This document shows positions 6,655-41,689 of a stretch of 64,000 nucleotides of DNA, piece by piece (position 1 is the first letter of the stretch; each line of letters begins with the position of its first letter). This DNA is from Solirubrobacteraceae bacterium (GTDB lineage Bacteria; Actinomycetota; Thermoleophilia; Solirubrobacterales; Solirubrobacteraceae). Below the pieces are notes generated by a model. It saw only the letters and a list, made by a program, of their open reading frames with translations, was not told where the DNA came from and ran no database searches. The stretch covers positions 62,001 through 126,000 of the forward strand of contig JANWIP010000003.1 in NCBI GenBank assembly GCA_025449845.1. The letters are read 5' to 3'. A program made the translations under genes and the position numbers.

Positions 6655-6684
6655 TTGACAAGAGCCATCACTTGTGCCTATAGT
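6655..6684 (+). promoter_or_regulatory. Cassette 1 promoter (TTGACA-18-TATAGT)
   Basis: TTGACA at 6655-6660 and TATAGT at 6679-6684 are 18 bp apart, close to the sigma-70 consensus. The sequence before the -10 box (CTTGTGCC) recurs in cassette 2 and nearly so in cassette 3 (CTTGTGCG). The promoters of cassettes 1 and 2 are identical over more than 40 bp. The interval 6492-6654 before it holds no gene I can support. Confidence 0.8.
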
Positions 6685-6785
6685 CATCCTGTGATCGCGT
6701 CCTGTCATGGGGTGCCTTCACACAGATAGGTCGGGTCAAGGGTTCTGCCCGCGTTATTTGCGGGGTCCATGGGACCGCAAGGGAA

Positions 6786-6958
6786 TGTCGGAGAGGGATT
6801 TCGATCGCTTTATGAGGGATGTTGAGATGAGTGATCTTCTTTTCACCGCGCCTAGCGCGGCCAATGGTCTTACGACCCCAATCGGGGGTCCAACTAGATG
6901 CGTCAGCATCACTGACGCATCTCTCTCTCTCTCTCTCTCTCTTGGCCCGGCTCTCTAG
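6786..6958 (+). CDS. Possible leader peptide in cassette 1 5' UTR
   Basis: An open frame of 57 codons starts MSERDFDRFMRDVEMSDLL, with an AGGGA stretch immediately before the ATG. It runs through the P1-P3 stems and the CT repeat, which encodes Ser-Leu repeats, to a TAG at 6958. Cassette 2 has an almost identical N-terminal half (22648-22830). Cassette 3 has only a 15-codon relic (MQWERD...). Conservation there may reflect RNA structure or recent duplication more than coding. Confidence 0.25.
6896..6942 (+). repeat. Invariant 11-bp hairpin followed by (CT)11
   Basis: AGATGCGTCAG (6896-6906) pairs perfectly with CTGACGCATCT (6912-6922) across a CATCA loop. Eleven CT units run from 6921 to 6942. 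The hairpin is base-for-base identical in all three cassettes while flanking sequence differs, and the CT number differs (11, 12, 13). The run is a simple-sequence repeat prone to slippage. Its RNA can pair with the GGGAGGGG ribosome binding site using G-C, A-U and G-U pairs only. Confidence 0.85.
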
Positions 6959-7145
6959 CTTCTAGGGCCTTTCGCCGCCTCGTTTCGGCGGCTCGCTTCG
7001 GCCACGAGGGCCGGGTTGGTCTTTCTCGCGCGTTGGGCGCGTTTCACGTTTCTGCCGTCTCGGGCTGGGTGCCCGCGGCGGTTTTGTGCCGCCCGGGCCT
7101 CCCGGGCGGTCGTGTTCTCGATTGCTCCGGGAGGGGATGGGTTTG

Positions 7146-10100
7146 ATGCGTATTCGTGGGCTGCTTGTGAGTATGCTGGGTGTGTTGTGTGCGGTGCTTG
7201 CGCTGGGTGTGGGGTCAGCGTCCGCGGCGCTCACGTACCCGTTTGACGGGCAGTTCGGGCCGGCAAGCGGCGCGTTTGGTGCTCTCGACGTGGGCAGTGT
7301 CGCGGTGAACGACTCCAACGACGATACGTATGTCGCGGATTCAGAAACGGGTGTAGTCGATGTGTTCGACTCCTCCGGCACGCAGCTTGCAAGTCTCGAC
7401 AGCTCGTTGACACCGGCGGGTTCCTTCGGGCGCGGGGAAGTCGCGGTCGCGGCGAACAACGGGACGGGCCGGGTGTATGTGCTGGACCCGGTGCACGATG
7501 TCGTCGACGCATTTGATCCTTCAGGAAATTATGTGTGTCAGATCACCGCCAGCGCGACACCGTCGGCGAGCGAGTGCAACGGTCCGGCTGGAAGCGCCAC
7601 CCCCGCTGGCGGCTTCAGCACGCCACGCGGGATCACGGTCGACCAGGCAACTGGCGAGGTCTATGTCGCGGACGCAAATAACGGCGTGATCGACATCTTC
7701 AGCGCGGGCGGTGAATATCTGCGGCAGATCCTGCTCAGCTCAATCCCCGGCGGCTTCGACAGTTTCTACACGCGTGGCATCGCGGTTGATGACTTCAACG
7801 ACCATGTATATATATCGTCGAGTGCATCCGGCATTTACGAGTTTGATGCCTCCGGCAGCTATGTCACACGTTGGACCGGATCGAATACTCCGGCAGGCTC
7901 ATTCGAAGGCTATCTCAGTGTCGCCGCCGACAACGCGACCGGCGAAATCTATGTCACCAGCTCATATCCCACCCCGATCACCAATGTCTTTGCATCTTCG
8001 GGTGAATACCTGAGGCAGTTCAGCCATTCTTACACGCGCCCCAAGGGCACCACGGTCGACCAGGCGACTGGCAGGGTCTATGTCTCGGACACCGAACCCT
8101 CCATCGTCGACGTCTTCGATCCCGCCACGGTTCTCCCTGATGTCACGACCGGGCCGGCCTCGAACGTGCATCCTACGAGCGCGACGGTCGAAGGCACGGT
8201 CAATCCCGACGCGGTCCAGTTGAGCGACTGTCACTTTGACTACGGGATCAGCACCGCCTACGGGCAGAGCGCGCCGTGCGTGCCCGCCGCTGCATCGCTC
8301 CCCGCGGACTCGAGCGCTCATGCCGTGACCGCGAACCTTACGGGGCTTGCGGCAGGGACGACCTATCACTTCCGACTGGAGGCTTCCAACGCGACCTGCG
8401 CACACTGTACGAGCTTCGCCGAAGACGCAACCCTCGCCACGCCGCCACCGCCTTCCATCGAAAGTGCATCGGCCGCGAACGTGACAGGCACATCGGCGGA
8501 CCTGACGGCACGGATTGACCCGAACGGCTCGGACACCACTTACCACTTCCAGTGGGGCACCAGCAGTTCCTACGGCGCCACTGTGCCCGTCCCCGCCGCT
8601 GATATCGGCACCGGGAGCGGCGCGGTATCGCAGCACATCACCGGTTTGAGCGCGGGCACGACCTATCACTGGCGGGCTGTCGCGACGAACGCCAACGGGA
8701 CGACCACCACCGCGGACTATACCTTCGTCTACGACACGGCAGGTGCGGGCCTCCCGGATAATCGTACATATGAAATGGTGACGCCGTCGCACAAGAACGG
8801 CGCGTTGATCGGCGATGAGGTTTTTGCCCCTCGCCCCGATTTATCGGAAGACGGTTCGCGTGTGATTCTCACGAGTATCCAGTGCTTCGCAGGTGCCGAA
8901 TCGTGCAACGCGGATCGTTATAACGAGGGTCAGCCGTACCTGTCTACGCGTACGAGCGGCGGCTGGGTGACGACTGCGCTTGCGCCCCCGGCGAGCCAAT
9001 TTGAAGCCAATGCCAATTGGCTGGTGAGCGCGGAAGCAGATGCCGCGTTGTTCAGCATGCCGACGGCACCTGCCGGAGAGGACGACTGGTATGCGCGTGA
9101 ACCCAACGGGTCATTTGTGGATGTCGGTCCGGTGACTCCGCCTGCGTCAGGACCATTGAGCATAAATCCGTTTGCTTCCAGTGTCCACCTGGCAACGGCC
9201 GATCTGTCACACGTCGTCTGGGCTACCGATACCGATGCTGGTGAACCTGTCTGGCCTTTCGATGCGACGACGCCAAACAGCATACGACAGACTGTCTATG
9301 AGTATGCGGGGAGGGGCAGCTCGCAGCCGATCTTGGTCGGGGTGACTGGCGCTAGGGGCAGCACCGACCTGGTCAGCGAGTGTGGGACCGAAGTGGAAGC
9401 GGGTAGAGTCTCTGGATCTTTGTCGGATGATGGCCGCACGGTTTATTTCACGGCGCAGCCGTGCTCGTCGGGGTCGGGTGCCAATGCGGGTACTCCGGTG
9501 CCAGTTAGTGAGTTGTTCGCGCGTATCGACGAGTCGCGAACGGTTGCGCTCTCTGCCCACGCGCCGGCATCGGAATGTGACGCTGCCTGCCAGACTTCGC
9601 CTCTCGCCGGTGCTCAGTTTCGGGGTGCCTACGCGGATGGATCGAAGGCGTTCTTCACGAGCACCCAGCAGCTCACGAACGGCGCAAGTGAGGACAACCA
9701 CAGCGGCGATAGCCCATCCGGAGAAGGCTGCACCCGAACGACTGGTGTGAATGGTTGCAACCTATATGAGTACGATTTCGCCAACCCCGCCGGCCATCGT
9801 CTGCTGGCGGTCTCGGCCGGCGATACGAGCGGCGGCGGACCGCGGGTGCAGGGGTTGGTCGCGATCTCCCAAGACGGGTCGCACGTCTACTTCGTCGCCA
9901 AAGGCGTGTTGACCGGTTCAGCGAATAGCCAAGGTCAGCTCGCGCGGGACGGCGCTGAGAACTTGTACGTGTTCGTGCGTGACGCCGGCCGCACGCAAGG
10001 CCAAGTGGCGTTCATCGCCCCGCTCTCTGTCTCTGACGACGAGGAGTGGATTGAAAGTAACAAGGCGAATGTGACCCCCGATGGCCGTTTCCTGGTGTTT

Positions 10101-10904
10101 ACGAGCCACGCGTCGTTGACGCCCGACGATACGAGCATCGCCGGTGGGCGGCAGGTGTTTCGCTATGACGCCCGGACGGCTGAGCTTGTGCGGATCTCGA
10201 TCGGTCAGGATGGTTTTAACGACAACGGCAACGTGGGTGTCGGCAACGCCAGCATCGTGCCGCCTGAAAACTTCACTTTCCGGGCCGGCCCGGTGCGGTC
10301 TGACCCGACGATGTCCCACGATGGTTCCTATGTCTTCTTTCAGAGCCCGATCGGATTGACGCCGGGGGCGCTCGACGATGTTCAGACCGGGTTTGAAGAA
10401 GGCAGTCCGCTCTACGCACAGAACGTGTATGAGTGGCATGACGGGCACGTGTATCTGATCTCCGACGGGCATGATGTGAGTACCGACCGGTTTGCCTCTT
10501 GCGAAGGACGTTATCCGTCGTCGGTGTGCCTGGTCGGTACCGATGCCACGGGCGCGAACGTATTCTTCACGACCGCAGATCCGCTGGTGGCACAGGACAC
10601 CGATACGGAGGTGGACTTCTACGACGCGCGGATCTGCACCGCGAGCGAGCCGTGCGTGGCATCCTTACCCCCGACGGCTGCGTGTCAGAGTGAAGCATGT
10701 CATGGCGCTCCGGGTATTGCGCCGTCGTCGCCTGAGGCGGCGACGGTGACATTCGGTGGCCCCGGCAACCTCGCATCACCGGTCGTATCGAAGGCGAAGG
10801 CCAAACCCAAGCACAGGGTCAGGCCGATGAAACGCAAGCGCAAGCACCGGCGGGGCCCCAAGCAGCGTAAACGTCATGGTCACACCACAGCAGGGGGTAA
10901 GTGA
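7146..10904 (+). CDS. Cassette 1 gene A: exported NHL/Fn3-like/TolB-like propeller protein
   Basis: A 1252-residue exported protein. Signal peptide at residues 1-27 (LLVSMLGVLCAVLALG, then SASA). Six NHL-like blades follow at about 35-325 (patterns such as ATGEVYVADANNGVIDIF), then two Fn3-like domains at about 330-530 with LTGLAAGTTYHFRL endings. A motif LPDNRTYEMVTPSHKNGA near 535 starts a large PD40/TolB-like propeller to about 1180. The last 38 residues are Lys/Arg-rich. The ATG at 7146 is chosen because it is 9 nt after GGGAGGGG; the ATG at 7137 touches that site. Probably envelope-bound or surface-exposed. It overlaps gene B by one base (TGATG). Biochemical role unknown. Confidence 0.75.
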   Translation: MRIRGLLVSMLGVLCAVLALGVGSASAALTYPFDGQFGPASGAFGALDVGSVAVNDSNDDTYVADSETGVVDVFDSSGTQLASLDSSLTPAGSFGRGEVAVAANNGTGRVYVLDPVHDVVDAFDPSGNYVCQITASATPSASECNGPAGSATPAGGFSTPRGITVDQATGEVYVADANNGVIDIFSAGGEYLRQILLSSIPGGFDSFYTRGIAVDDFNDHVYISSSASGIYEFDASGSYVTRWTGSNTPAGSFEGYLSVAADNATGEIYVTSSYPTPITNVFASSGEYLRQFSHSYTRPKGTTVDQATGRVYVSDTEPSIVDVFDPATVLPDVTTGPASNVHPTSATVEGTVNPDAVQLSDCHFDYGISTAYGQSAPCVPAAASLPADSSAHAVTANLTGLAAGTTYHFRLEASNATCAHCTSFAEDATLATPPPPSIESASAANVTGTSADLTARIDPNGSDTTYHFQWGTSSSYGATVPVPAADIGTGSGAVSQHITGLSAGTTYHWRAVATNANGTTTTADYTFVYDTAGAGLPDNRTYEMVTPSHKNGALIGDEVFAPRPDLSEDGSRVILTSIQCFAGAESCNADRYNEGQPYLSTRTSGGWVTTALAPPASQFEANANWLVSAEADAALFSMPTAPAGEDDWYAREPNGSFVDVGPVTPPASGPLSINPFASSVHLATADLSHVVWATDTDAGEPVWPFDATTPNSIRQTVYEYAGRGSSQPILVGVTGARGSTDLVSECGTEVEAGRVSGSLSDDGRTVYFTAQPCSSGSGANAGTPVPVSELFARIDESRTVALSAHAPASECDAACQTSPLAGAQFRGAYADGSKAFFTSTQQLTNGASEDNHSGDSPSGEGCTRTTGVNGCNLYEYDFANPAGHRLLAVSAGDTSGGGPRVQGLVAISQDGSHVYFVAKGVLTGSANSQGQLARDGAENLYVFVRDAGRTQGQVAFIAPLSVSDDEEWIESNKANVTPDGRFLVFTSHASLTPDDTSIAGGRQVFRYDARTAELVRISIGQDGFNDNGNVGVGNASIVPPENFTFRAGPVRSDPTMSHDGSYVFFQSPIGLTPGALDDVQTGFEEGSPLYAQNVYEWHDGHVYLISDGHDVSTDRFASCEGRYPSSVCLVGTDATGANVFFTTADPLVAQDTDTEVDFYDARICTASEPCVASLPPTAACQSEACHGAPGIAPSSPEAATVTFGGPGNLASPVVSKAKAKPKHRVRPMKRKRKHRRGPKQRKRHGHTTAGGK

Positions 10905-13900
10905 TGCGAGGCAAAGACATTTCCAACCGCACGACGCATAGTCATGCGTACATATCGCGTGCTGGTGTGCTTACGGGCCTTACCGCTGTGCTGGTGGCGC
11001 TGATGCTGGCGGCCGGCACTGCCACGGCCGCAATCCCGGCAGCGGGCTTCGCGATTCACTCGTTCGCGATACCGAGTGACTTTTCCGTCGCCAAGAATGC
11101 CGACTGTGCCCGCGTCGTCAGTGAAGATTCGACGAACCCTGCCCCGCCCTGTGATGCCTACCAGGTAACGGTGCGCAACGCCGGCAGTCAAGCGACGGAT
11201 GGCAGCACGATCACGCTCGCCGACACCCTGCCGGCGGGCGTGGCGCTCCAAAGCATCAGCTTTAACTGGTCGGGTGCGAACGTGAATCTGAGCGAAGAAT
11301 TCTGCAGCGTCGTGTCGGGGCGGGCGCAGTGTCGTTGGCCGGAAACACTGCGACCCGACGAAACGCTTGAGATGAAGATCTTCGTGACGGTGGAACCGGG
11401 CGCCTTGGGTGACGTTGAGAACACTGCAACGGTCTCAGGCGGCGGCGCCCTGCAAGCCGCCTCGAGCATGCGCAACCCGATTGGCTCGATGCTGACGGTG
11501 TTTGGTGTGGGGAGTTTGACCTCCGATATCGCGGGAGTGGATGGTGCGCCTGACACCCAGGCTGGTTCCCACCCGTATGGGTTCACGACACGGCTCGACT
11601 TCAACACCGGGTTCAGGATCCCCCCCAACGCCTTTGGCGGGAGAGAGGAACCTACGAGCGTTCGCGATGTCAAAGATGTCGTGGTGGATCTCCCGCTCGG
11701 GTTCGTCGGCAGTGCCTTGGCGGCGCCGAAGTGCACCCTGACGCAGCTCTCCGCACTGGAGCAGGGGAATGAAGGAGCCATCAGGGGCGCCTGTCCCGCC
11801 GATACGACGCTCGGTCACATCCGCTCCGAGCCATCCGGCACGGATTCGGTGGACGCGCCGTTGTACAACATGGTGCCTGAGCACGGCGTCGCAGCGGAGT
11901 TCGGCTACGTGGACGCGGTGGAAGGGGCACATGTTCTCTATGCGAGCGTCGTGCCGAGCCCCTCGGGATATGTGCTGCGCACTACGAGCACCGATGTGCC
12001 ACAGGTCGCCATAACCAACATCGAAGTGACGCTCTTTGGCGATCCCGCTGCTGCGGACGGGAGCGGCAACACCCAGGTCGCGCTCTTCACGAACCCGTCG
12101 GACTGCTCGGGGGAACCGTTGGTGACTTCGGTCCACATGGACTCCTGGCAGAGCCCGGGGCGCTTCAACGCGGATGGTACCCCGGACTTCACGGACCCGA
12201 GCTGGGTGGGGGGGGTTTCGGAATCCCCGCCGGTGACGGGCTGCAATCAGCTGCGGTTTGACCCGTCGTTGAGTGCACGGCCGGATACGACGGCTGCCGA
12301 CAGCCCGTCGGGGCTGGATGTCGACTTGAAGATCCCGCAGAGCGAGGAACCGGGCACGTTGGCGACGCCGCCGCTCAGGAACGCGGCTGTAACGCTTCCG
12401 GCTGGTTTGACGCTTGACCCGTCGGCGGCGGCCGGGCTGGGGGCGTGCAACTTGGCGCAGATCGACTTGGCTGGCGCGGGCGAGCCGTCGTGCCCCGAAT
12501 CGTCGAAGATCGGGACAGTCGAACTGTCGACGCCGCTGTTGGATGGCACGCTGACAGGCTCGATCTACCTCGCGACGCAGGGTGAAAACCCGTTCCACAG
12601 TCTCCTCGCGGGGTACATCGTGGTCGATGACCCGACGACAGGTGCGGTCATCAAGATTCCGGGCAACCTCACGCCGGACCCGAATACCGGTCAGATCACG
12701 GGGGTGTTCGACAATAACCCGCAGTTCCCGTTCAGCGATCTGAAGCTGCACTTCTTCGGTGGTGCGCGTGGTGAGCTGGCGACCCCCGCGGGCTGTGGCA
12801 CGTACACGACGACCTCGGATCTGATGCCGTGGTCCGCCCCAGACTCTGGTCCGGATGCGATGCCGTCGGACAGCTTCCCGATCGATACGGGTTGTATGAG
12901 TGGGTTCGCGCCGAGTTTCACGGCGGGGAGCGAGAACCCGCAGGCGGGTGGCTACTCTCCGTTCACGCTGTCCCTCTCAAGGACCGACGGCGACCAGAAC
13001 CTCTCGGGCCTGTCTGTGTCGTTGCCGCCTGGGTCTCTGGCGAAGGTTGCGGGTGTCCCGCTGTGCCCCGACGCGAACGCGAATGGGGGCACGTGCCCTG
13101 AAGCCTCGCAGGTGGGGACGATGCAGGTCGGCGCGGGTGTCGGTCCCAATCCGTTGTTCGTGTCGGGGAAGGTGTACCTGACGGGCCCGTACAAAGGTGG
13201 CCCATATGGCTTAGTGGTGGAGGTCCCCGCGATCGCGGGGCCGTTCAACTTGGGGACGGTGGTTGTGCGCCAGTCGCTGCGGATTGACCCCACCGATGCG
13301 CACGTCACGGCGGTGTCTGATCCGCTGCCGACGATCCTGGACGGCATACCGCTAAGAGTGCGCAGGGTGGATGTGACGTTGGACCGTGCGGGGTTCACGT
13401 TTAACCCCACGAACTGCACCCCGATGGCTGTCACGGGCACAATGACCTCCACCGAAGGCGTAAGCACGAACGTGTCCTCACGGTTTCAGGCGGGAGGGTG
13501 TGGTGAACTGCCGTTCAACCCGAAGTTCACCGTGAGTACGCAGGCGAGGACGAGTAAGAAGAACGGTGCGAGCCTGGACGTGAAGGTGGGCTACCCCCAG
13601 GGGCCTGAGGCGAACATCCACTCGGTCGCGGTGGTTCTTCCCAAGCAGTTGCCCTCAAGGCTCTCGACGATCCAGCAGGCGTGCCCCGAGGCGACGTTCG
13701 ACTCAAATCCGGCGTCGTGTCCGGCGGGCTCGAACATCGGGATAGGGACCGCCAGGACACCGGTTCTCTCAAACCCGCTGACGGGCCCGGCGTACCTGGT
13801 GTCTCACGGTGGCGCGGGATTCCCCGACCTGGTGTTGATCCTCCAAGGCGAAGGCGTGACGCTGAACCTGGTCGGCAGCATCGACATCAAGCACAGCATC

Positions 13901-14170
13901 ACGAGCAGCACCTTCGCGAATGTCCCCGACGCCCCGATCAGCTCGTTCGAGTTGAGCCTCCCCGAGGGCCCGCACTCCGGTCTCGGAGCGGTCGTCCCCG
14001 CGAAGGCGAAAGGCAACCTCTGTGGCCAGGTTCTGACGATGCCCACGACGATCACGGGCCAGAACGGCGCGCAGGTCAAGCAGAGCACGAAGATCACAGT
14101 CACTGGTTGCCCGAAGGCGAAGAAGAAGGCGAAGGCGAAGAGGCACGCCAAGAAGGGCGGGAAGAAGTAG
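10904..14170 (+). CDS. Cassette 1 gene B: exported DUF11-like multi-module protein
   Basis: A 1088-residue exported protein. A charged N-terminus is followed by the hydrophobic signal VLTGLTAVLVALMLAAG, ending near residue 44. A DUF11-like domain follows (TLADTLPAGVALQSIS, then VENTATVSGGG) to about 185. Four related modules begin near residues 275, 510, 715 and 924. Each carries a Cys, then a CPxxSxIG-type motif, then a PLYN/IYLA/VYLTGP/AYLVSHGG strand. The protein ends KAKKKAKAKRHAKKGGKK. The start overlaps the gene A stop, which implies translational coupling. The fold suggests a wall-associated or adhesive partner of protein A. That is inference. Confidence 0.7.
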   Translation: MRGKDISNRTTHSHAYISRAGVLTGLTAVLVALMLAAGTATAAIPAAGFAIHSFAIPSDFSVAKNADCARVVSEDSTNPAPPCDAYQVTVRNAGSQATDGSTITLADTLPAGVALQSISFNWSGANVNLSEEFCSVVSGRAQCRWPETLRPDETLEMKIFVTVEPGALGDVENTATVSGGGALQAASSMRNPIGSMLTVFGVGSLTSDIAGVDGAPDTQAGSHPYGFTTRLDFNTGFRIPPNAFGGREEPTSVRDVKDVVVDLPLGFVGSALAAPKCTLTQLSALEQGNEGAIRGACPADTTLGHIRSEPSGTDSVDAPLYNMVPEHGVAAEFGYVDAVEGAHVLYASVVPSPSGYVLRTTSTDVPQVAITNIEVTLFGDPAAADGSGNTQVALFTNPSDCSGEPLVTSVHMDSWQSPGRFNADGTPDFTDPSWVGGVSESPPVTGCNQLRFDPSLSARPDTTAADSPSGLDVDLKIPQSEEPGTLATPPLRNAAVTLPAGLTLDPSAAAGLGACNLAQIDLAGAGEPSCPESSKIGTVELSTPLLDGTLTGSIYLATQGENPFHSLLAGYIVVDDPTTGAVIKIPGNLTPDPNTGQITGVFDNNPQFPFSDLKLHFFGGARGELATPAGCGTYTTTSDLMPWSAPDSGPDAMPSDSFPIDTGCMSGFAPSFTAGSENPQAGGYSPFTLSLSRTDGDQNLSGLSVSLPPGSLAKVAGVPLCPDANANGGTCPEASQVGTMQVGAGVGPNPLFVSGKVYLTGPYKGGPYGLVVEVPAIAGPFNLGTVVVRQSLRIDPTDAHVTAVSDPLPTILDGIPLRVRRVDVTLDRAGFTFNPTNCTPMAVTGTMTSTEGVSTNVSSRFQAGGCGELPFNPKFTVSTQARTSKKNGASLDVKVGYPQGPEANIHSVAVVLPKQLPSRLSTIQQACPEATFDSNPASCPAGSNIGIGTARTPVLSNPLTGPAYLVSHGGAGFPDLVLILQGEGVTLNLVGSIDIKHSITSSTFANVPDAPISSFELSLPEGPHSGLGAVVPAKAKGNLCGQVLTMPTTITGQNGAQVKQSTKITVTGCPKAKKKAKAKRHAKKGGKK

Positions 14171-14184
14171 AGGTGGCGGTTCTG

Positions 14185-28385: not shown

Positions 28386-28406
28386 GCAGGAGCGGTGGCT
28401 GCTCTC

Positions 28407-33109: not shown

Positions 33110-33507
33110 TCGGGCTTGTCTTTCTGACTCAGTGGGCGAGCGCGACATCAAATAGGTCCGGTTTTGGGGTTCGCCTTCGGGTTGGGCTTCAGCGCTGACG
33201 AGGGATGCAATGGGAGAGGGACTTGATCGCCTTGGGAAGAGATGAGCGATGAGCGTTAAAGCTTGCACCGCGCGCGGCGCGGACGGTGATCGTACGCCCC
33301 CTTCAGGGGGCCTAGCTAGATGCGTCAGCATCACTGACGCATCTCTCTCTCTCTCTCTCTCTCTCTCTTGGCGGGGTTATCGGCCAGTTGGCTAGGTAGC
33401 AGTCCCCGCCGTCTTTCTGCCGCTCTGCGCTTTCGGCGCAGGGTGGCTTTGTGCTGCTCGGGCCTCCCGGGTGGTCGTGTTCTCTATTGCTCCGGGAGGG
33501 GATGTTG
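33110..33507 (+). promoter_or_regulatory. Cassette 3 structured 5' leader
   Basis: This is the most diverged leader. It keeps P1 CCGCGC/GCGCGG with a GCG loop (33268-33282), P2 GCCCCC/GGGGGC (33296-33311), P3 identical (33318-33344) and P4 CTGCGC/GCGCAG (33445-33450 with 33456-33461, or nearest equivalent at the CTGCGCTTTCGGCGCAG segment). A hairpin around CGGGCCTCCCG precedes the ribosome binding site GGGAGGGG (33494-33501). P2 and P4 differ in sequence from cassette 1 but stay fully paired. That is the main argument for a conserved RNA fold. Confidence 0.7.
33318..33368 (+). repeat. Invariant 11-bp hairpin followed by (CT)13
   Basis: The hairpin at 33318-33344 is identical to the other two copies, although the sequence on both sides is diverged. 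The CT run spans 33343-33368, thirteen units. Confidence 0.85.
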
Positions 33508-36500
33508 ATGGTGCGCTTGGTGTTGGCTGGGCAGGGGTTGGCGCGGGTGGTCCTGGTTTCGCTGTGTGTTGTGGTCTGCGGGGCTGTGGTGGGTGTGGCG
33601 CCGGCGTTGGCGGTTGTGAGCCGGTTCGGCAATGGTGAAGGTCCGGGGGCGGGGCAGTTCCGGGAGCCGCACGGTGTGACGGTGGAGCAGGAAAGCGGCG
33701 ATGTGTATGTCGCCGATAAGGAAAACGAGCGGGTGGACAAGTTTGGGCCGGGTGGTGAATTCCTGTTTGCGTGGGGTTGGGGTGTGGCGGATGGGCATAC
33801 CGAAGCGTTGCAGAGGTGTACGAGCGTGTGTTTCACGGGGGTCTACGGCGGGGGTTCGGGTGAGCTCCGGTTCCCGGAAGGTGTGGCGGTCGATAACGAT
33901 CCGTTGAGCGCGTCCCATGGCGATGTGTACGTGGTCGACGCCGGCAACAGTCGTGTGCAGAAGTTCGATTCGGCTGGGAACTTTCTGCTGATGTTCGGCG
34001 GGGAAGTCAATGCGACGACCAAGGGGAATGTGTGTCTGGCGGGCGAAGCGTGCCAGGCGGGGGTGGAAGGGTCCGGCCCGGGGCAGTTCGTGGGTTCGCG
34101 GGGTGATCGTATCGCGGTGGATTCCTCCGGCACGGTGTTCGTGGGCGATGCGAACCGGGTGCAGGAGTTCAGTCCCGAAGGGGTGTATGAAGGGCAGATC
34201 GCGATCCCTGGCGCCGGGGAAGTCATCGCGCTGGCCGTGGATTCCAGCGGCGATGTGTATGTCGAGGGTCGCGAACTGGGCGGGGTGCACGAGTACAACG
34301 GGGCAGGTGTGGAATTGGGTGAACCGCGAGACCCGTCGAGCCACCCGTACTCCGGCAACGCGATCGCTGTGGGTCCCTCCGATGAACTGTTCATCGACAG
34401 CGGTGAAGGATCGCATCGTCTCCTGCAGTTCGATCCCGCGGGTGGCGAGGTCGCGAGCTTCGACGCGGGTCCCGAACCCGGCAATCGTGGTATCGCGTTC
34501 GGTAACGGTATCGGCGGGTTGTATGTGCTGGAGGCCGGTGCGGTGCGGTTGGTGAGCCCGCCGCCGGCGGGGCCGCTAGTGCCGGCGGGCAGCGAGTCGG
34601 CCGGGGAACTGCAGCCTACGGCCGCGACGGTCAACGCGACCGTCAACCCCGAGGGTCATGAAACGAGCTACAGCTTCGAATACGGCACGAGCGAAGCGTA
34701 CGGGGCGAGCACCACGCCGGTCGCGCTGACGGGGGAAAGCTTCGAAGACCAACCCGCGAGCGCCGCCTTGAGCGAACTGCAGCCGCGCACCCTGTATCAC
34801 TTCCGGGTCGTAGCGACGGATAACGCGAGTCCCACGCCGCATACCACGTTTGGGCCGGATGAGACGTTCACGACCCTCCCGCCGGTGTTGATCGACAGCG
34901 AGTCGGTGTCGGGGGTGACGGCCAGGAGCGCGACGCTCGCGGCGCAGCTGAACCCGCTGGGGCGGGACACCAGGTTTCGTTTTGAGTACGGCTCCACCAC
35001 AGCGTATGGGACGAGCGTGCCCGTACCGGACGGCGATGCTGGCGCGGGCACTGCGGATGTCGCGTTGAGCGCGTTGGTCGAGGGTCTCTCGCCGGGCACT
35101 GTCTACCACTATCGTGTGGTGGCGTATAACTCGCTCGACGCTCCCGGTACGGTGGTGGAAGGCTCCGATCGAACCTTCACGACGCAGGCTGGGGAAGCGC
35201 CGGGTTTGTTGGATGGTCGTGCGTGGGAGTTGGTGTCTCCGCCGGATAAGCATGGTGCGGCGTTGGAAGCTCTCGGTGTCAGTCAGGCCGCTGGGGGGGC
35301 TTTGATCCAGGCGGCGCGGGGTGGTGGTGCGGTTACGTATGTGGCGAACGGCCCGGTGGATCCCAATCCGGCGGGCAACCGCAATGTCGAGTTTACGCAG
35401 GTCTTGGCGGCTCGTGGGGTGGGTGGCTGGTCCTCGCGTGGTATCGCGACGCCGCTGGAACCCCCGGTGGTCGGTTTTGTTGCCCAGAGTACGTCTGAGT
35501 ACCGGTGGTTCTCGGATGATCTGTCGGTTGGTCTGGTCGAACCGGCGGGTGTGACGCCGCTTTCGCCGGCTGCGTCGGAAAGGACGATTTACCGGCGTGA
35601 GGCCGATGGTGAATACACGCCTTTGGTGGATGCCGCGAATGTGCCGCCGGGCACCGAATTCGGCAAGAGTCCCGAAGAAGTCCACTTCGTTGGTGCCAAT
35701 CCTGATTTGAGTCATGCCGTTCTCAGCTCGAAGCGGGCGTTGACGCCTGGTTTCCTCAGTGGTGGGCTTTCGAGCGTGTATGAGTGGGCCGGTGGGTCTT
35801 TGCGGCTTGTCAGTGTGCTGCCCGGTAGTGGCAAGCCGGCGGCGGAAGAAGGTGAGGGAGCCCTCGTTGGGACCGACCAAAACAACGCCAGGCATGCGGT
35901 GTCTGACGATGGTTCGCGTATCGTCTGGTCTACTCTTAATTCTGGTGGAGAAGTCCATCTCTACGTGACCGATATGGGTCTGGGGCGGTCGGTGCAGCTA
36001 GATGTCGTCGGGGAAGGCGCGCAGGGCGGCAGCGGGGAACCTGTCTTCCAGACGGCGAGCGGTGATGGGTCCAAGGTGTTCTTCACGGATGGGAGCAGGT
36101 TGACGGCGGACGCCACGAGCGATCAAGTCAAGCCCGACCTGTATATGTGTGAAGTTGGTGTGGCGGCGGGTAAGCCGACGTGCCGGTTGAAGGATCTCAC
36201 GGCCGATGAACACGCGGGTGAAGCCGCGGATGTGCAGGGTGTGGCGATGGGCGCCGGTGAAGACGGCAGGTATGTTTACTTCGTCGCCAATGGTGCTCTC
36301 GCCCCGGGCGCGGCGCCCGGGAATTGCAATGGGGAGGCGCATACTGGGATGTGCAATCTCTATGTGGTTGACACCGTGACGGGTGAGAGGAAGCTCGTCG
36401 CGGCGCTCTCAGGTGAAGATCACAACGATTGGGTAGCGGAAGGACCCGGTGGTACCACGGGTCTTCTTGTTCGGTTGTCGTCGAGGGTGTCGCCGAATGG

Positions 36501-37416
36501 TCGGTATCTGACGTTCATGTCGGAGAGGAGTCTGACTGGGTATGACAATATCGACGTGCATAGCGGCCAGGCGGATGAGGAGGTTTTCGTGTATGACGTC
36601 GGTACGGGTCGTGTGGTGTGCGCGTCGTGTAACCCGTCGGGTGCGCGTCCATCCGGCGTGTTCGACCCTGGCGCGTCCCGGACGTTGCTTGTCGACCGCC
36701 CGGGTGCGTGGGAGGGTCGTTGGTTGGCTGCGTCGATCCCGGGGTTGACGAATGCCTCGGGTAACAGCGCGTGGTATCAGTCTCGTTACCTGTCCGATAG
36801 TGGCCGGTTGTTCTTCAACGCGGCGGATGCGCTTGTGGGGCGGGACACCAACGGCCGGGAGGATGTGTATGAGTATGAGCCCGGTGGGGTCGGTGGGTGC
36901 GCCCGGCCGGCTGGGTGTGTCGGTTTGATCTCCTCCGGCACGTCGGGTGTGGAATCGGCGTTCATGGACGCGAGCGAATCGGGCGATGAAGTGTTCTTCC
37001 TCACCGCTTCGCAATTGGTGGGGCAGGATGTGGATGGGGCGCTTGATCTGTATGACGCGCGGGTGTGCTCTGTTGCCTCGCCGTGCCTGGGCAGCCCGCC
37101 CGCGGTGGTTGCCCCTGCGTGTTCCAGCAGCGAGTCGTGCCGGGGTATCGCGCCGGGGCAGCCGCAGGCGTTCGCCTCGCCGTCGAGCATGAGCGCGTCG
37201 GGTGGGGGGAATCTGGTCCCGCCTGCTGGTGGCCCTGTGGTCAGGGGCAGGGGTTTGAGTAGGGCGCAGAAGCTCGCGGGGGCACTGCGGGTGTGTAGGA
37301 GGAAGCCGGTGCGGGTGCGTGCGTTGTGTAGGGCGCGGGCGCGGCGGTTGTATGGATCGGGCGTGCGGGCGAAGCGGGCCGGTAGCGCTGGGGCGAGCAG
37401 GAAGGGCAAGGGGTGA
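33508..37416 (+). CDS. Cassette 3 gene A: exported NHL/Fn3-like/TolB-like propeller protein
   Basis: A 1302-residue exported protein. A long hydrophobic signal (VVLVSLCVVVCGAVVGVAPALA) ends near residue 34. Six NHL-like blades cover about 38-350 (for example GDVYVVDAGNSRVQKFDSAG), then two Fn3-like domains about 360-560 (LQPRTLYHFRVVATDN, VEGLSPGTVYHYRV). The shared motif GLLDGRAWELVSPPDKHGAAL lies near 566 and the TolB-like propeller runs to about 1240. A basic Arg-rich tail with two cysteines closes it. The ATG at 33508 is 6 nt after GGGAGGGG; 33502 is an alternative. Same architecture as cassette 1 with clear sequence divergence. Confidence 0.75.
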   Translation: MVRLVLAGQGLARVVLVSLCVVVCGAVVGVAPALAVVSRFGNGEGPGAGQFREPHGVTVEQESGDVYVADKENERVDKFGPGGEFLFAWGWGVADGHTEALQRCTSVCFTGVYGGGSGELRFPEGVAVDNDPLSASHGDVYVVDAGNSRVQKFDSAGNFLLMFGGEVNATTKGNVCLAGEACQAGVEGSGPGQFVGSRGDRIAVDSSGTVFVGDANRVQEFSPEGVYEGQIAIPGAGEVIALAVDSSGDVYVEGRELGGVHEYNGAGVELGEPRDPSSHPYSGNAIAVGPSDELFIDSGEGSHRLLQFDPAGGEVASFDAGPEPGNRGIAFGNGIGGLYVLEAGAVRLVSPPPAGPLVPAGSESAGELQPTAATVNATVNPEGHETSYSFEYGTSEAYGASTTPVALTGESFEDQPASAALSELQPRTLYHFRVVATDNASPTPHTTFGPDETFTTLPPVLIDSESVSGVTARSATLAAQLNPLGRDTRFRFEYGSTTAYGTSVPVPDGDAGAGTADVALSALVEGLSPGTVYHYRVVAYNSLDAPGTVVEGSDRTFTTQAGEAPGLLDGRAWELVSPPDKHGAALEALGVSQAAGGALIQAARGGGAVTYVANGPVDPNPAGNRNVEFTQVLAARGVGGWSSRGIATPLEPPVVGFVAQSTSEYRWFSDDLSVGLVEPAGVTPLSPAASERTIYRREADGEYTPLVDAANVPPGTEFGKSPEEVHFVGANPDLSHAVLSSKRALTPGFLSGGLSSVYEWAGGSLRLVSVLPGSGKPAAEEGEGALVGTDQNNARHAVSDDGSRIVWSTLNSGGEVHLYVTDMGLGRSVQLDVVGEGAQGGSGEPVFQTASGDGSKVFFTDGSRLTADATSDQVKPDLYMCEVGVAAGKPTCRLKDLTADEHAGEAADVQGVAMGAGEDGRYVYFVANGALAPGAAPGNCNGEAHTGMCNLYVVDTVTGERKLVAALSGEDHNDWVAEGPGGTTGLLVRLSSRVSPNGRYLTFMSERSLTGYDNIDVHSGQADEEVFVYDVGTGRVVCASCNPSGARPSGVFDPGASRTLLVDRPGAWEGRWLAASIPGLTNASGNSAWYQSRYLSDSGRLFFNAADALVGRDTNGREDVYEYEPGGVGGCARPAGCVGLISSGTSGVESAFMDASESGDEVFFLTASQLVGQDVDGALDLYDARVCSVASPCLGSPPAVVAPACSSSESCRGIAPGQPQAFASPSSMSASGGGNLVPPAGGPVVRGRGLSRAQKLAGALRVCRRKPVRVRALCRARARRLYGSGVRAKRAGSAGASRKGKG

Positions 37417-37421
37417 TCGCG

Positions 37422-40400
37422 ATGGCATCGGCCAAGATGAGTGTTCGTTGGGTTGTGGCGGTGTGTGCGCTGGTGGCAGCGTGTGCGGTGAGCGTGCCGG
37501 CGTATGCGTCCTCGCCGTGGTGGACCCTGTCTTCGGGTGCGCGTCCGGCGAATCTCCCGCCGGGTGGGGAAGGCACGATCGTGGCGCGCGCGGTCAACGC
37601 GGGCGATGCGGCGAGCACGGGCAGTGTGACGCTCAGCGATACGTTGCCGGTGGGTGTGAGCGCGCAGAGCGTGTCGTTCTACGCGTTTACCCTCGGGGGC
37701 GGGAAGATCGACCTGAGTGGCATTCCGGGTGCGTGCGAAACGACCCCTGGTCGTGTGCAGTGTGTCTATCCGGGGGAACCGTCGGGGTTCCTGCCTGTAC
37801 TGAACCCGTATGAATGGGTCGAGATGCGGATCGCGGTGAAGGTGGGAGCGGGCGCGGTGTCCGGTGGGAACCGTGTGGAAGCGACGGGCGGCGGCGCCGG
37901 CGGCGCGTCGTTGCAGCAGCCGGTTGTGGTGGATGGTGCGCCGGCGCCGTTTGGTGTGGAAGATTTCCGGTTCGTCCCTGAAGACGAGGGTGGGGCGGTC
38001 GATACGCGGGCGGGTTCGCACCCGTTTCAGTTGACGGCGTCGCTCGCGCTGAACCAGGGCACCGATCTGACGAGGCCCCCGGCGCTGCCGAGGGATCTGC
38101 GGTTCCTGTTACCGCCGGGTCTCGTGGGTAACGCGACCGCGGTCGCGCAGTGCAGCGAACTCGACTTCGTGCCCGCAAGCACCGGCCCCCCCACCAATCG
38201 CTGTGCGGCGAATACCGCGATCGGGGTCGCGACGGTGACAATCGAAGAACCCTTCGGCATTCACTTGGTCACGTTGCCTGTGCCGTTGTTCAACCTGGTG
38301 CCGGGGCCGGGTGAGCCGGCGCGGTTCGGGTTCGAGGTCGAGAAGAGCCCCGTGATCCTCGATACCTCGGTACGCGCGGGCCGCGACTACGGTGTCCTCA
38401 CCAGCGCGAGCAACATCACGCAGCTCGCATCGTTCATCTCCAGCCAGGTCACGTTCTGGGGTGTCCCGGGTGACCCGCGCCACGACCAGTCACGCGGCTG
38501 GAGCTGTGTGGCGAACAACTTCTGGGGAAGCGCTGGGGCTCCTCCTTGCGTCGCTCAGGCCCAGGGCAACCCTCCGCCGCTCCTGACGCTTCCCACGTCG
38601 TGTGCGATCCCGTTCCGGGCGGGTGTGCAAGGCGACGCGTGGCCGACGAAGAGCGACCCGCAGGGCCTCACGCTCCCTGCGCGTGAATACCAGCTCGCGG
38701 ACAGCCTCGGCCGGGAACTGGCGTTGACGGGTTGTGAGCAGTTGCCGTTCTCCCCGTCGATCCAGGTGACCCCGGAAACACACTCCGCGAGCACCCCGAC
38801 CGGCCTTGACGTACACGTCCACCTCCCCCAGGACACGACCGCGACTGCGGAAGGGTTGGCGGAGGCCGCGATCAGGGACGCGACCGTCACGCTGCCCGAA
38901 GGGATGGCCTTGAACCCCTCTGGTGCGGGTGGCCTTGAAGCCTGCACGGAGACCCAGATCGGGTTTCAGGGGACCGCCGTGGACGGCACGCAGCTGTTCT
39001 CCCCGGATCTCCCCGAACCGTTCTGCCCCGACGCATCGAAGGTCGGGACGGTGAAGGTCAGGCTGCCGATCATTCCGAACCCGTTGGAAGGCGCGGTGTA
39101 TGTCGCCTCACAGAACGCGAACCCGTTCAGTTCATTGGTCGCGTTGTACATCGTCGCGAAGGACCCCGTGTCGGGGATCCTTGCGAAGGTTCCCGCGGAA
39201 GTCGCCTTGGACCCGGTGTCGGGGCGGTTGACGACGACGATCCACAATACGCCGCAGGCCCCGATCGAAGACATCGAACTGCACTTCTTCGGTGGTGGCC
39301 GTGGCCCGTTGGCGACTCCCGCGATGTGCGGGACGTACACCACCACTGGGTCGTTCTCGCCGTGGTCTGAAACCCCGGCGGTGAACACCACGGCGTCGTT
39401 TGACATCACCAGCGGCCCGGGCGGTGGGCCGTGTCAGAGCCCCGCGCCGTTCGCGCCCACGTTGACGGCGGGCATGGTCAACAGCCAGGCCGCGACGTTC
39501 AGCCCGTTCACCGCGACGTTCTCCCGCAGCGATGCGGACCAGGGCATCTCGGGTGTGACGGTCACGACCCCACCCGGCTTGTTGGGGATCCTCAAGGGTG
39601 TGGAACGCTGCGGCGAACCGCAGGCCGGCCAGGGGACGTGTGCGCCTGGGAGCCTCATCGGGCACGTCACCGCGGCTGCGGGCGCCGGCCCCGAACCGTA
39701 TGTGCTGCAGGGCGGCAAGGTGTTCCTCACCGGGCCCTACAAGGGTGCCCCGTTCGGCCTCTCGATCGTGGTGCCTGCTGTGGCGGGCCCGTACAACCTG
39801 GGGAACATCACGGTTCGCGCGGCGATTCACGTGGACCCGCACAGCGCGCAGATCACTGTGACGAGCGACCCGTTGCCCACGATCTGGAAGGGCATCCCGT
39901 TGCAGGTGAGGAAGGTGAACGTCACGATCGACCGGAAGGGGTTCACGTTCAACCCGACCAACTGCGAACCCCTCAGCGTGGGTGGGACGCTGACCAGCAC
40001 ACAGGGCGCCAAGGCAAATGCCTCAAGCCATTTCCAGGCGGTGAACTGCGCGAGCCTCCCGTTCAAACCCAGGTTCACGGTGTCCACGCAGGCGAAGACG
40101 AGCAAGAAGAACGGTGCCAGCCTCGACGTGAGGGTCGGGTACCCCTCAGGGGCTCAGGCGAACATCCGCTCGGTTGCGGTGACGTTGCCCAAGGCGTTGC
40201 CGTCGCGGTTGACGACGATCCAGCAGGCCTGCCCGGCGGCGACGTTCAACGCGAACCCCGCGTCGTGCCCGGCGGGCTCGAACATCGGGACGGCAGTCGC
40301 CAGTACCCCGGTCCTCTCAAGCCCCGTATCGGGTCCGGTGTACCTGGTGTCCCACGGTGGCGCGGCGTTCCCCGATCTCGTGCTGCTCCTCCAGGGTGAA

Positions 40401-40736
40401 GGCGTCACTCTCGAACTCATCGGCAGCATCAACATCAAGAAGCAGGTGACGAGCAGCGCGTTCAACGCCATCCCCGACGCTCCGATCAGCAGCTTCGAGC
40501 TGAAGCTGCCCGAGGGCCCGCACTCCGGTCTAGCGGCCGTCGTCCCCGCGAAGGCCAAGGGCAACCTCTGCGGCCAGTCCCTGGTCATGCCGACCACCAT
40601 CACCGGGCAGAACGGTGCGCAGATCAAGCAGAACACCAAGATCGCCGTCACGGGCTGCACCAAAGCCAAGAAGAAGCCCAAGGCCAAGCGCACCCGGAGG
40701 GCGCATGGCAAGAAGGCGAAGGCCGGGAAAGGCTAG
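37422..40736 (+). CDS. Cassette 3 gene B: exported DUF11-like multi-module protein
   Basis: An 1104-residue exported protein with signal VVAVCALVAACAVSVPAYAS. The DUF11-like region (TIVARAVNAGDAASTGSVTL) and four modules follow, marked by CAANTAIGVA, CPDASKVGTV, CAPGSLIGHV and CPAGSNIGT. The tail is KAKKKPKAKRTRRAHGKKAK-like. The ATG at 37422 has AAGGGG 8 nt upstream and lies 5 nt after the gene A stop. Its final G is the first base of the gene C GTG (TAGTG). Confidence 0.7.
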   Translation: MASAKMSVRWVVAVCALVAACAVSVPAYASSPWWTLSSGARPANLPPGGEGTIVARAVNAGDAASTGSVTLSDTLPVGVSAQSVSFYAFTLGGGKIDLSGIPGACETTPGRVQCVYPGEPSGFLPVLNPYEWVEMRIAVKVGAGAVSGGNRVEATGGGAGGASLQQPVVVDGAPAPFGVEDFRFVPEDEGGAVDTRAGSHPFQLTASLALNQGTDLTRPPALPRDLRFLLPPGLVGNATAVAQCSELDFVPASTGPPTNRCAANTAIGVATVTIEEPFGIHLVTLPVPLFNLVPGPGEPARFGFEVEKSPVILDTSVRAGRDYGVLTSASNITQLASFISSQVTFWGVPGDPRHDQSRGWSCVANNFWGSAGAPPCVAQAQGNPPPLLTLPTSCAIPFRAGVQGDAWPTKSDPQGLTLPAREYQLADSLGRELALTGCEQLPFSPSIQVTPETHSASTPTGLDVHVHLPQDTTATAEGLAEAAIRDATVTLPEGMALNPSGAGGLEACTETQIGFQGTAVDGTQLFSPDLPEPFCPDASKVGTVKVRLPIIPNPLEGAVYVASQNANPFSSLVALYIVAKDPVSGILAKVPAEVALDPVSGRLTTTIHNTPQAPIEDIELHFFGGGRGPLATPAMCGTYTTTGSFSPWSETPAVNTTASFDITSGPGGGPCQSPAPFAPTLTAGMVNSQAATFSPFTATFSRSDADQGISGVTVTTPPGLLGILKGVERCGEPQAGQGTCAPGSLIGHVTAAAGAGPEPYVLQGGKVFLTGPYKGAPFGLSIVVPAVAGPYNLGNITVRAAIHVDPHSAQITVTSDPLPTIWKGIPLQVRKVNVTIDRKGFTFNPTNCEPLSVGGTLTSTQGAKANASSHFQAVNCASLPFKPRFTVSTQAKTSKKNGASLDVRVGYPSGAQANIRSVAVTLPKALPSRLTTIQQACPAATFNANPASCPAGSNIGTAVASTPVLSSPVSGPVYLVSHGGAAFPDLVLLLQGEGVTLELIGSINIKKQVTSSAFNAIPDAPISSFELKLPEGPHSGLAAVVPAKAKGNLCGQSLVMPTTITGQNGAQIKQNTKIAVTGCTKAKKKPKAKRTRRAHGKKAKAGKG

Positions 40737-41689
40737 TGGCGGCCCAGGCTCTCAGCCCCGCCGAGCACCCGGCGCGCAGCAGGGTCTCGGAGATTCAGCG
40801 CCAGCGGCTGCTGGGGGCAATGGCGGAGGTGACGGCGGAGCGGGGCGTGGGGTCGGTGACCGTGGCGCACATCGTGGGGCGCTCGGGCGTGTCGCGGCGG
40901 ACGTTCTACGAACTGTTCTCCGATCGCGAAGACTGCCTGCTGGCGGCCCTGGACCAGGCGGTGGCGCGGGCGAGCGCGGCGGTTCTGCCGGCGTATGCGG
41001 GCGAGCGGCGCTGGCGGGAGCGGATACGCGCGGCGCTGGGCGCGCTGCTGGCGTTCTTCGACGAGGAGCCGTCGATGGCCCGCTTGTGCGTGGTGGAGTC
41101 GCTGGGCGCGGGGCCGGGAGCGCTGGAGCGCAGGACGGGCATCGTGCAGATCCTGATCCGCGCGATCGACGAGGGCCGGGGGGAAGCGAGACCGGGGAAG
41201 GACGCGCCACCGCTGACGGGGGAGGGCGTGGTGGGCGCCGTCCTGGCCGTCATCCACGCGCGGCTGGTGGCGCCCAATCGCAAGCCGCTGTCCCCGCTGA
41301 CACCGGCCTTGATGAGCATGATCGTGCATCCTTACCTCGGCCAGGCGGCGGCCGAGAAGGAGCTGCACAAACCGGCCCCCCAACTCAAAACAAAATCCCG
41401 TCCTCGGCGGGACCCGCTCGACGGGCTCGACATGCGCCTCACTTACCGCACCGTCAGGGTCCTCGTAGCGATCGGCGCGAACCCACGTGCGAGCAACCGG
41501 GGCGTCGCGGCCGCCGCGGGCATCGCCGACCAAGGCCAGATCTCGAAGCTGCTCACGCGGCTGCAGAACCTCGGCTTGATTCGCAACGAGGGTGAGGGGC
41601 AGGCCAAGGGCGCGCCGAATGCCTGGGGGCTGACGCCCAAAGGCCAGGAGGTCGAGCGTTCGATTCGCCTGGAGGGCGCCAGCGGCTAG
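40736..41689 (+). CDS. Cassette 3 gene C: TetR regulator with C-terminal winged helix
   Basis: A 317-residue regulator starting with GTG (MAAQALSPAEHPARSRVSEIQ). The TetR HTH (GSVTVAHIVGRSGVSRRTF) and helical core resemble the other two. The C-terminal winged helix (IADQGQISKLLTRLQNLGLI, then KGAPNAWGLTPKG) is kept. The one-base overlap with gene B implies strict translational coupling. It ends 27 bp before rsmA. It is the closest relative of the short winged-helix remnant at 44797. Confidence 0.85.
   Translation: MAAQALSPAEHPARSRVSEIQRQRLLGAMAEVTAERGVGSVTVAHIVGRSGVSRRTFYELFSDREDCLLAALDQAVARASAAVLPAYAGERRWRERIRAALGALLAFFDEEPSMARLCVVESLGAGPGALERRTGIVQILIRAIDEGRGEARPGKDAPPLTGEGVVGAVLAVIHARLVAPNRKPLSPLTPALMSMIVHPYLGQAAAEKELHKPAPQLKTKSRPRRDPLDGLDMRLTYRTVRVLVAIGANPRASNRGVAAAAGIADQGQISKLLTRLQNLGLIRNEGEGQAKGAPNAWGLTPKGQEVERSIRLEGASG

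What the first reader, a model, noticed from the sequence alone, without database searches (positions are those of the whole stretch)
6655..41689. Three-copy cassette: structured leader, two exported giant proteins and a two-headed TetR regulator
The units 6655-15147, 22519-29402 and 33073-41689 share promoter, leader, gene order, overlap pattern and polybasic protein tails. Gene A has an NHL/Fn3/TolB-like (or TolB-only) propeller, gene B a DUF11-like domain plus four related modules, gene C a TetR with an extra winged helix. I know of no described system with this composition. A surface or wall-associated assembly under autoregulation is the likely reading. The sharing is seen in the sequence; the function is inference.
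Basis: partly seen in the sequence, partly recalled or inferred. Interest (0 to 1): 0.88.

Follow-up and report, generated by a model that had tools for sequence, protein, structure and literature searches.

The report
Repeat-tract switch on surface-protein operons
A soil actinobacterium seems to carry eighteen operons for large exported proteins, each behind a small leader gene with a run of repeated CT letters whose length appears to decide whether the operon is translated, so cells could switch these proteins on and off at random.

Summary
The three A-B-C units are real. Their "structured leader" is the main point: it holds a short reading frame that crosses a hairpin and a perfect (TC)11-13 tract. 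The window's genome has 18 such leaders, each before an A-B-C or C-A-B unit. A non-C base followed by (TC)8 occurs 18 times in the genome, only there, and in 6 of 150 other genomes searched. After the tract, two frames stop within 12-28 nt in 17 of 18 leaders. The third stays open 66-201 nt and its stop lies at the first gene's start in 17 of 18; in the 18th it runs into gene A. A related genome has 7 such tracts and a tract-less leader whose frame runs unbroken to gene A's start. Most likely this is a phase-variable, translationally coupled leader. As assembled, 1 of 25 copies is in the coupled frame. No tract has been seen to change. The nearest known mechanism is the GCAGA-repeat leader peptide of Streptococcus gallolyticus pil1. 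B is modelled as a chain of Ig-like domains; C is TetR plus a winged helix.

The parts
6655..6684 (+). Unit 1 promoter TTGACA-18-TATAGT
6790..6796 (+). Unit 1 GGAGAGG, invariant in 24 of 24 aligned leaders and complementary to the CT tract
6827..6958 (+). Unit 1 leader ORF as assembled (ends at TAG 6956, OFF)
6897..6921 (+). Unit 1 hairpin before the tract
6920..6942 (+). Unit 1 (TC) tract, n = 11
6943..7146 (+). Unit 1 coupled frame; its TGA 7144-7146 overlaps ATG 7146 of gene A; the other frames stop at TAG 6956 and TAG 6963
7146..10904 (+). Unit 1 gene A: NHL repeats, Fn3-like and PD40/TolB-like regions, basic tail
10901..14170 (+). Unit 1 gene B: DUF11 match plus beta domains, basic tail
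14182..15147 (+). Unit 1 gene C: TetR plus MarR-like winged helix
22519..22548 (+). Unit 2 promoter
22690..22830 (+). Unit 2 leader ORF as assembled (ends at TAG 22828, OFF)
22760..22784 (+). Unit 2 hairpin
22783..22807 (+). Unit 2 (TC) tract, n = 12
22808..23011 (+). Unit 2 coupled frame; TGA 23009-23011 overlaps ATG 23011 of gene A
23011..25164 (+). Unit 2 gene A: PD40/TolB-like only, basic tail
25161..28385 (+). Unit 2 gene B
28395..29402 (+). Unit 2 gene C
33073..33102 (+). Unit 3 promoter
33249..33395 (+). Unit 3 leader ORF as assembled (ends at TAG 33393, OFF)
33319..33343 (+). Unit 3 hairpin
33342..33368 (+). Unit 3 (TC) tract, n = 13
33371..33508 (+). Unit 3 coupled frame; TGA 33506-33508 overlaps ATG 33508 of gene A; this copy would couple at n = 12 or 15
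33508..37416 (+). Unit 3 gene A
37413..40736 (+). Unit 3 gene B: modelled as a chain of Ig-like beta domains
40736..41689 (+). Unit 3 gene C: modelled as a TetR body plus a winged helix

Best explanation
Each unit is driven by one sigma-70-type promoter and opens with a small translated leader ORF. Ribosomes start at a conserved ATG/GTG, cross a hairpin and enter a (TC)n tract in one fixed frame. Replication slippage changes n. For two of the three values of n modulo 3 the ribosome meets a stop shortly after the tract and does not reach the first gene (OFF). For the third value it stays in an open frame up to that gene's start, where its stop codon overlaps or abuts the start (TGATG, GTGA, TAGGTG), so that the gene, and with it the A-B-C row, is translated by coupling (ON). 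The products are large exported proteins, probably on the surface: B a rod of Ig-like domains, A a propeller protein, both with basic tails; C is a co-expressed regulator. Shown in sequence: the leader frame, the tract, the stops in the two other frames, the stop-start overlap, hairpin covariation, and a tract-less copy fixed in the coupled frame. Inferred: that n changes in living cells, that coupling or polarity sets expression, surface location, and the role of C.
For: 18 of 18 hairpin-tract leaders stand before such units. Of the 18, 17 have two frames stopping at 12-28 nt and a third whose stop lies -1 to +3 nt from the first gene's start, whether that gene is A (13) or C (4); the 18th (L017) runs in frame into A. 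Own-genome spacers differ in length (66-201 nt), yet the coupled frame has the same phase to the tract end in 15 of 17. Start-to-tract spacing is 93 nt in 9 and 84 nt in 13 of 25 leaders; 83 and 62 nt in two; one is cut by a contig end. Shuffles of 22 copies (left out: L017, L150, L152, which lack the two early stops or run into A): mean chance 0.023 per copy of a stop at the observed place; 2.5 copies expected with exactly two frames closed within 30 nt, 22 seen. Long TC tracts: 18 in the genome, all here; 6 of 150 others have any. Independent genome G007 (its loci match isolate palsa_744): 7 tract leaders, 5 with the full layout. A tract-less leader there runs 132 codons to a TGA overlapping the ATG of gene A. 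The own genome gives no MutS_I match and one NucS match; NucS repair is reported not to correct indels (PMC8228993, passages).
Against: No tract has been seen to vary within a population; the collections allowed no read-level test. The genomes are draft MAGs. The peptide is not conserved: pN/pS 0.77-1.12 before and 0.82 after the tract, while shifted frames give 0.71-1.18. The spacer is poor in stops in all frames (0 of 1231 coupled-frame codons, 21 of 1990 others; per-copy chance of an open frame 0.10-1.0), so openness alone is weak. Two of 7 leaders in G007 (L150, L152) close only one frame early, and in L151 and L153 the stop lies 11-12 nt from the start. L017 and L018 have deletions that shift the leader frame. 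Copies are related, so chances must not be multiplied. Gene A keeps a purine-rich stretch before its start, so uncoupled translation is possible. The leader is found in 2 of 24 genomes of the genus.
Confidence: 0.85

Rival explanations
1. The tract switches the leader frame, but the effect is on transcription: when ribosomes stop early, a terminator hairpin (or Rho) acts in the spacer; when they read on, it cannot, as in Streptococcus gallolyticus pil1.
For: A direct precedent exists (PMC3894217, passages). Terminator-like GC hairpins with a T-rich tail lie in the spacer of many long-spacer copies, one of them at 6997-7015 in unit 1.
Against: The unit 1 terminator-like site is no more than chance (shuffles mean 1.0). 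Two short-spacer C-first copies (L005, L006) have no such hairpin and the other two (L011, L014) only T-poor ones, yet they keep the stop-start overlap.
Confidence: 0.3
2. A fixed regulatory leader: hairpin, GGAGAGG and CU tract form an RNA element that responds to a signal or to protein C, and tract length is of no consequence.
For: Hairpin covariation: 3 of 9 pairs with changes on both sides, 11 cells, 0 of 500 shuffles as many cells; the count of such pairs was reached by 26 of 500, further pair types by 194 of 500, and one of the 9 pairs fails in 16 of 24. GGAGAGG is invariant and pairs with the tract in the consensus fold, 24 of 24. The peptide is not conserved.
Against: It does not explain stops in both wrong frames, stop-start overlap in the third, tract lengths 11-15, or the tract-less copy fixed in the coupled frame.
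Confidence: 0.1
3. The hairpin-CT element is a mobile or gene-converted repeat that happens to lie in these operons and does nothing.
For: Near-identical hairpin in 15 of 18 copies while A, B and C have diverged.
Against: 18 of 18 copies are in the same place before the same kind of unit and no long TC tract was found elsewhere in the genome. In G007 the hairpin differs but keeps its pairs.
Confidence: 0.03

Closest known systems
Streptococcus gallolyticus pil1 and pil3 leader-peptide phase variation (PMC3894217; abstract and passages seen)
   Same: A short repeat inside a leader-peptide gene before a surface-protein operon; repeat number sets the frame and so the length of the leader; a longer leader means ON.
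   Different: There the repeat is GCAGA, two loci are described and a terminator is the target. Here the repeat is TC, 18 loci, the stop overlaps the start of the first gene, two stops close the wrong frames, and the operon carries its own TetR-type regulator. No variation has been seen here.
Neisseria opa genes with CTCTT repeats (PMC11475388 passages; about 11 genes per genome in the abstract of PMC3745409 as listed)
   Same: Many dispersed paralogous surface genes, each with its own repeat that sets the reading frame.
   Different: The repeat lies inside the opa reading frame itself; here it lies in a separate leader ORF.
Bifidobacterium breve pilus G-tract switch (PMC9187656; abstract and passages seen)
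   Same: An actinobacterial frame switch by replication slippage for exported proteins; polarity is proposed for the downstream genes.
   Different: A homopolymer inside the first structural gene, two clusters in that strain, gut commensal.
PrgB Ig-like domains (PDB 8beg, best Foldseek match of the B model)
   Same: Chain of Ig-like beta domains (E 6.5e-13).
   Different: 8% identity and TM-score 0.12 over the whole query; a likeness of fold type only, shared with complement, integrin and mastigoneme chains.

Membership tests
Phase variation by slipped-strand change of a simple sequence repeat | A perfect short tandem repeat placed so that its length decides a reading frame | tested here: met
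   18 of 18 own-genome and 7 of 7 G007 leaders hold a (TC)11-15 tract inside the leader frame
Phase variation by slipped-strand change of a simple sequence repeat | Reversible change of repeat number within a population | not testable with these tools
   No reads or second isolates at hand; tract lengths differ between paralogues only (11 to 15)
Phase variation by slipped-strand change of a simple sequence repeat | Change of expression with repeat number | not testable with these tools
   needs reporter or RNA data
Leader-peptide repeat switch with attenuation (S. gallolyticus pil1 type) | Repeat inside a leader ORF before the operon | tested here: met
Leader-peptide repeat switch with attenuation (S. 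gallolyticus pil1 type) | Intrinsic terminator between leader and first gene | tested here: inconclusive
   hairpins with T-rich tails in many long-spacer copies; none in L005 and L006; unit 1 site not above chance
Translational coupling | Stop codon of the upstream frame at or over the start codon of the next gene | tested here: met
   17 of 18 own-genome copies within -1 to +3 nt, the 18th fused in frame; tract-less copy ATGA overlap
TetR family (protein C) | N-terminal TetR_N domain and helical ligand domain | tested here: met
   TetR_N above Pfam cut-off in 3 of 3; helical body at residues 12-210 in the model
MarR-like winged helix (C-terminal part of protein C) | MarR profile above cut-off | tested here: inconclusive
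   MarR_2 26.8, 27.3 and 23.6 bits against a cut-off of 27; winged-helix-like elements at 237-315 in the model
DUF11-containing wall proteins (protein B) | DUF11 domain | tested here: inconclusive
   met in unit 1 only; no Pfam match in units 2 and 3 at E 0.01

The most novel reading that the evidence does not exclude
A free-living soil actinobacterium runs a repertoire of 18 phase-variable operons for surface proteins of which few, perhaps one, is ON at a time, with the co-encoded regulator C silencing or permitting other copies: an antigenic-variation-like system aimed at phages, predators or competitors rather than at an immune system.
Probability: 0.2. Interest if true: 0.93.

Novelty: new variant of a known kind. 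Interest (0 to 1): 0.8.

Why it matters
Repeat-tract switching of large surface-gene families is best known from host-adapted bacteria (own knowledge; compare). Here sequence points to 18 switched loci in an uncultured Solirubrobacterales-type soil genome, with an unusual device: a separate leader ORF, stops in both wrong frames and stop-start coupling in the right one. It makes exact, cheap predictions: n = 1 mod 3 is ON for most copies, n = 0 mod 3 for L003 (unit 3) and L010. It suggests that bacteria without MutS may favour such switches. The excess of OFF states (1 ON of 25; P = 5e-4 if each frame were equally likely) hints that few copies are on at once.

Tried and rejected
Rfam at gathering threshold found only a tRNA in the window. 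The hairpin plus CT tract was not called a terminator in the scan of 6500-7200. A conserved functional peptide was tested by pN/pS and not supported. A genus-wide leader was tested with a sequence model (R1): 2 of 24 genomes. The exact hairpin-plus-tract pattern with up to 3 mismatches was found in 1 of 81 genomes, the own one; the related leaders were found through B homologues and a leader profile. The TC tracts in five other genomes (six loci looked at) have no A, B or C within the loci held. In the 12 stretches with further B genes only short repeats were seen. Four stretches with further C genes (L161-L164) gave no leader match at E 1. The VIA-align library was not available. Ribosomal slippage on the tract would need a 2-base slip; nothing supports it (reasoning only). 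Transcriptional slippage on the tract is not excluded and would give leaky ON. Not tested: MutL, signal-peptide prediction, C binding to DNA, structure of A.

Literature: searches found no paper with all terms; searches listed papers, of which the S. gallolyticus one (111) is the nearest. I saw nothing on this system in those listings. The library is open-access only, so absence is weak evidence.
Full report
What was given. I checked the sequence, then looked at the genome in which the window lies (G000, 3,274,599 bases in 36 contigs, 92.64% complete by the tool's figure) and at relatives.

Each unit has TTGACA-18-TATAGT, a leader of about 400-460 nt, gene A, gene B overlapping A by 4 nt, and gene C. 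Gene A has NHL repeats, Fn3-like and PD40/TolB-like regions in units 1 and 3, and PD40-like only in unit 2 (several of these matches are near or below Pfam's cut-off). DUF11 is matched only by the unit 1 B protein. Protein C has TetR_N above cut-off in 3 of 3 and a MarR_2 match at 23.6-27.3 bits against a cut-off of 27. A model of C shows a helical TetR body followed by winged-helix elements (mean pLDDT 82.8). A model of B (29 sequences, mean pLDDT 84.9) is a row of beta domains; its best Foldseek matches are PrgB Ig-like domains, mastigoneme proteins and complement chains, at whole-query TM-scores of about 0.1, so they show the kind of fold and not kinship.

There are 18 leaders, not three. 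The 27-base hairpin pattern with up to 3 mismatches has 18 matches in the genome (12 exact, 3 with one, 3 with three mismatches; control pattern 0). All 18 stand before a unit: 14 in A-B-C order, one of them cut by a contig end, and 4 in C-A-B order (L005, L006, L011, L014). The B profile gives 35 matches, which I read as 33 genes because two are split: 17 with the tract leader, one at a contig start with A, B and C (L161), one degenerate with A and C (L162), and 14 without tract leader. I looked at 13 of those 14: 11 have an A upstream, 2 have not, none has C.

The leader contains a reading frame. In all 18 a frame is open across hairpin and tract; in 16 the leader's own frame reads RC[VF]S[IV][TA][DE]A(SL)n, while deletions put L017 and L018 in another frame. 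Counting G007, the distance from leader start to tract is 93 nt in 9, 84 nt in 13, and 83 and 62 nt in two of 25 copies; one is cut by a contig end.

The tract decides the frame. After the tract, two frames stop at 12-28 nt in 17 of 18 own-genome copies (L017: 20 and 91 nt). The third stays open for 66-201 nt in 17, and its stop lies -1 to +3 nt from the start codon of the first gene, A or C. In L017 the third frame runs straight into gene A. The spacers differ in length, yet the coupled frame keeps the same phase to the tract end in 15 of 17 (frame 0; L003 and L010 use frame 2). Shuffles of 22 copies give a mean chance of 0.023 per copy of a stop at the observed place, and 2.5 copies expected with exactly two frames closed within 30 nt against 22 seen; the three copies left out (L017, L150, L152) do not meet that second criterion, so the count over all is 22 of 25. 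The copies are related; these chances must not be multiplied.

The tract is special to these leaders. A non-C base followed by (TC)8 occurs 18 times in the genome, only at the leaders; of 150 other genomes of genus, family and order 144 have none and six have at least one (tracts that begin after a C are not seen by this pattern). G007, of the same genus, has six on this pattern and a seventh that begins after a C.

A second genome shows the same layout. The G007 loci match contigs titled Solirubrobacterales bacterium isolate palsa_744: all 60-mers for L153/L051, L150/L082 and L200/L074, 98% for L154/L115, 65% for L152/L055, whose fetched stretch is shorter. Its hairpins differ from the window's but keep their pairs. 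Five of its 7 tract leaders have two frames closed within 30 nt and a third that runs to the first gene; the third frame's stop lies -1 to +4 nt from the start in three of the five and 11-12 nt away in L151 and L153. L150 and L152 close only one frame early. An eighth leader in this genome has no tract: its frame runs unbroken for 132 codons and its TGA overlaps the ATG of gene A, while the other two frames stop early (found, and again as L200, identical). That is what one expects if the coupled frame is the working state.

State of the copies. Following the leader's frame through the tract, 1 of 18 own-genome copies (L008, n = 13) and 0 of 7 in G007 are in the coupled frame (for L148 the leader start is cut off and the frame is taken from the conserved residues). 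With equal chances per frame, 1 or fewer of 25 has P = 5e-4, of 18 P = 0.007, of 16 (without L017 and L018) P = 0.014. All three units of the window are OFF as assembled (n = 11, 12 and 13; unit 3 would couple at 12 or 15). A MAG shows at best the commonest length, not the state of single cells.

What does not fit or is weak. The peptide is not conserved: pN/pS is 0.86, 1.12 and 0.77 before the tract in three groups and 0.82 after it; shifted frames give 0.71-1.18. I therefore read the leader as a path for ribosomes. Stops are rare in all frames of the spacer (0 of 1231 coupled-frame codons, 21 of 1990 others beyond the first 30 nt), so openness alone is weak evidence; the early stops and the overlap carry the case. 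Hairpin covariation is clear by cells (11, none of 500 shuffles) but less so by number of pairs (3, reached by 26 of 500), and one of the 9 pairs fails in 16 of 24. GGAGAGG is invariant in 24 of 24 aligned leaders and pairs with the tract in the consensus fold; its role is untested.

Mechanism. A MutS_I search of the own genome gives no match (11 of 14 control genomes do), and NucS_C gives one; the genome is about 93% complete and MutL was not searched. NucS-type repair is reported not to correct indels, though the same review notes that polymerase proofreading may remove most short indels in actinobacteria (PMC8228993, passages). The last step could be re-initiation at the overlapping start, relief of polarity, or prevention of a terminator. 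Terminator-like hairpins are seen in many long-spacer copies but not in L005 and L006, while the stop-start overlap is in 17 of 18.

Comparison. The closest described mechanism is the GCAGA-repeat leader peptide of Streptococcus gallolyticus pil1, where longer leader peptides prevent a terminator (PMC3894217, abstract and passages). Opa genes (PMC11475388, passages) and the Bifidobacterium pilus G-tract (PMC9187656, abstract and passages) are frame switches inside structural genes. Different here are the TC leader tract, stops in both wrong frames, stop-start coupling, and 18 loci in one environmental genome. I call it a new variant of a known kind.

Distribution of the proteins. B relatives came from 67 loci of named genomes, most titled Solirubrobacterales, Solirubrobacteraceae, Conexibacter or other actinobacteria; one record is titled Phenylobacterium and one Bifidobacterium breve, probably misplaced contigs (my inference). 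In 48 of 55 loci with enough upstream DNA an A gene precedes B; 11 of 67 hold a close C, ten of them from palsa_744. C has matches in 17 of 24 genomes of the genus, the leader in 2 of 24. The A-B pair is thus widespread, C less closely tied, and the tract leader known from two genomes.

Noticed in passing
L185 (G016:C71), L184 (G016:C25), L183 (G016:C17), L186 (G018:C13): In two other genomes of the genus a different leader ORF beginning ATGCGTAGT holds a (GA)6-9 tract; in L185 it runs in frame into a C gene, in L183 and L186 it stops just after the tract, L184 ends with the contig. Possibly a second repeat switch.
   Followed up: partly
L123, L124, L127 (G049, G052): (TC)8-9 tracts lie between TTGACA/TTGACG and TTTATT, where a length change would alter promoter spacing; no A, B or C within the loci held.
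   Followed up: no
window 18409-41717: Units 2 and 3 interrupt a housekeeping row: TP_methylase 18409, methionyl-tRNA synthetase 29451, TatD 31685, rRNA adenine dimethylase 41717.
   Followed up: no
window 19895-21415, 21258-22460 and 32424-33053: Two Fic-domain genes before unit 2 and a PemK/MazF-like gene before unit 3.
   Followed up: no
B proteins of the units, about the last 220 residues: The C-terminal part of B is far more alike between copies than the rest, which may reflect gene conversion between units.
   Followed up: no
L026:17989-18065 and beyond: A promoter-leader remnant (profile positions 5-81) stands before a truncated C gene.
   Followed up: no
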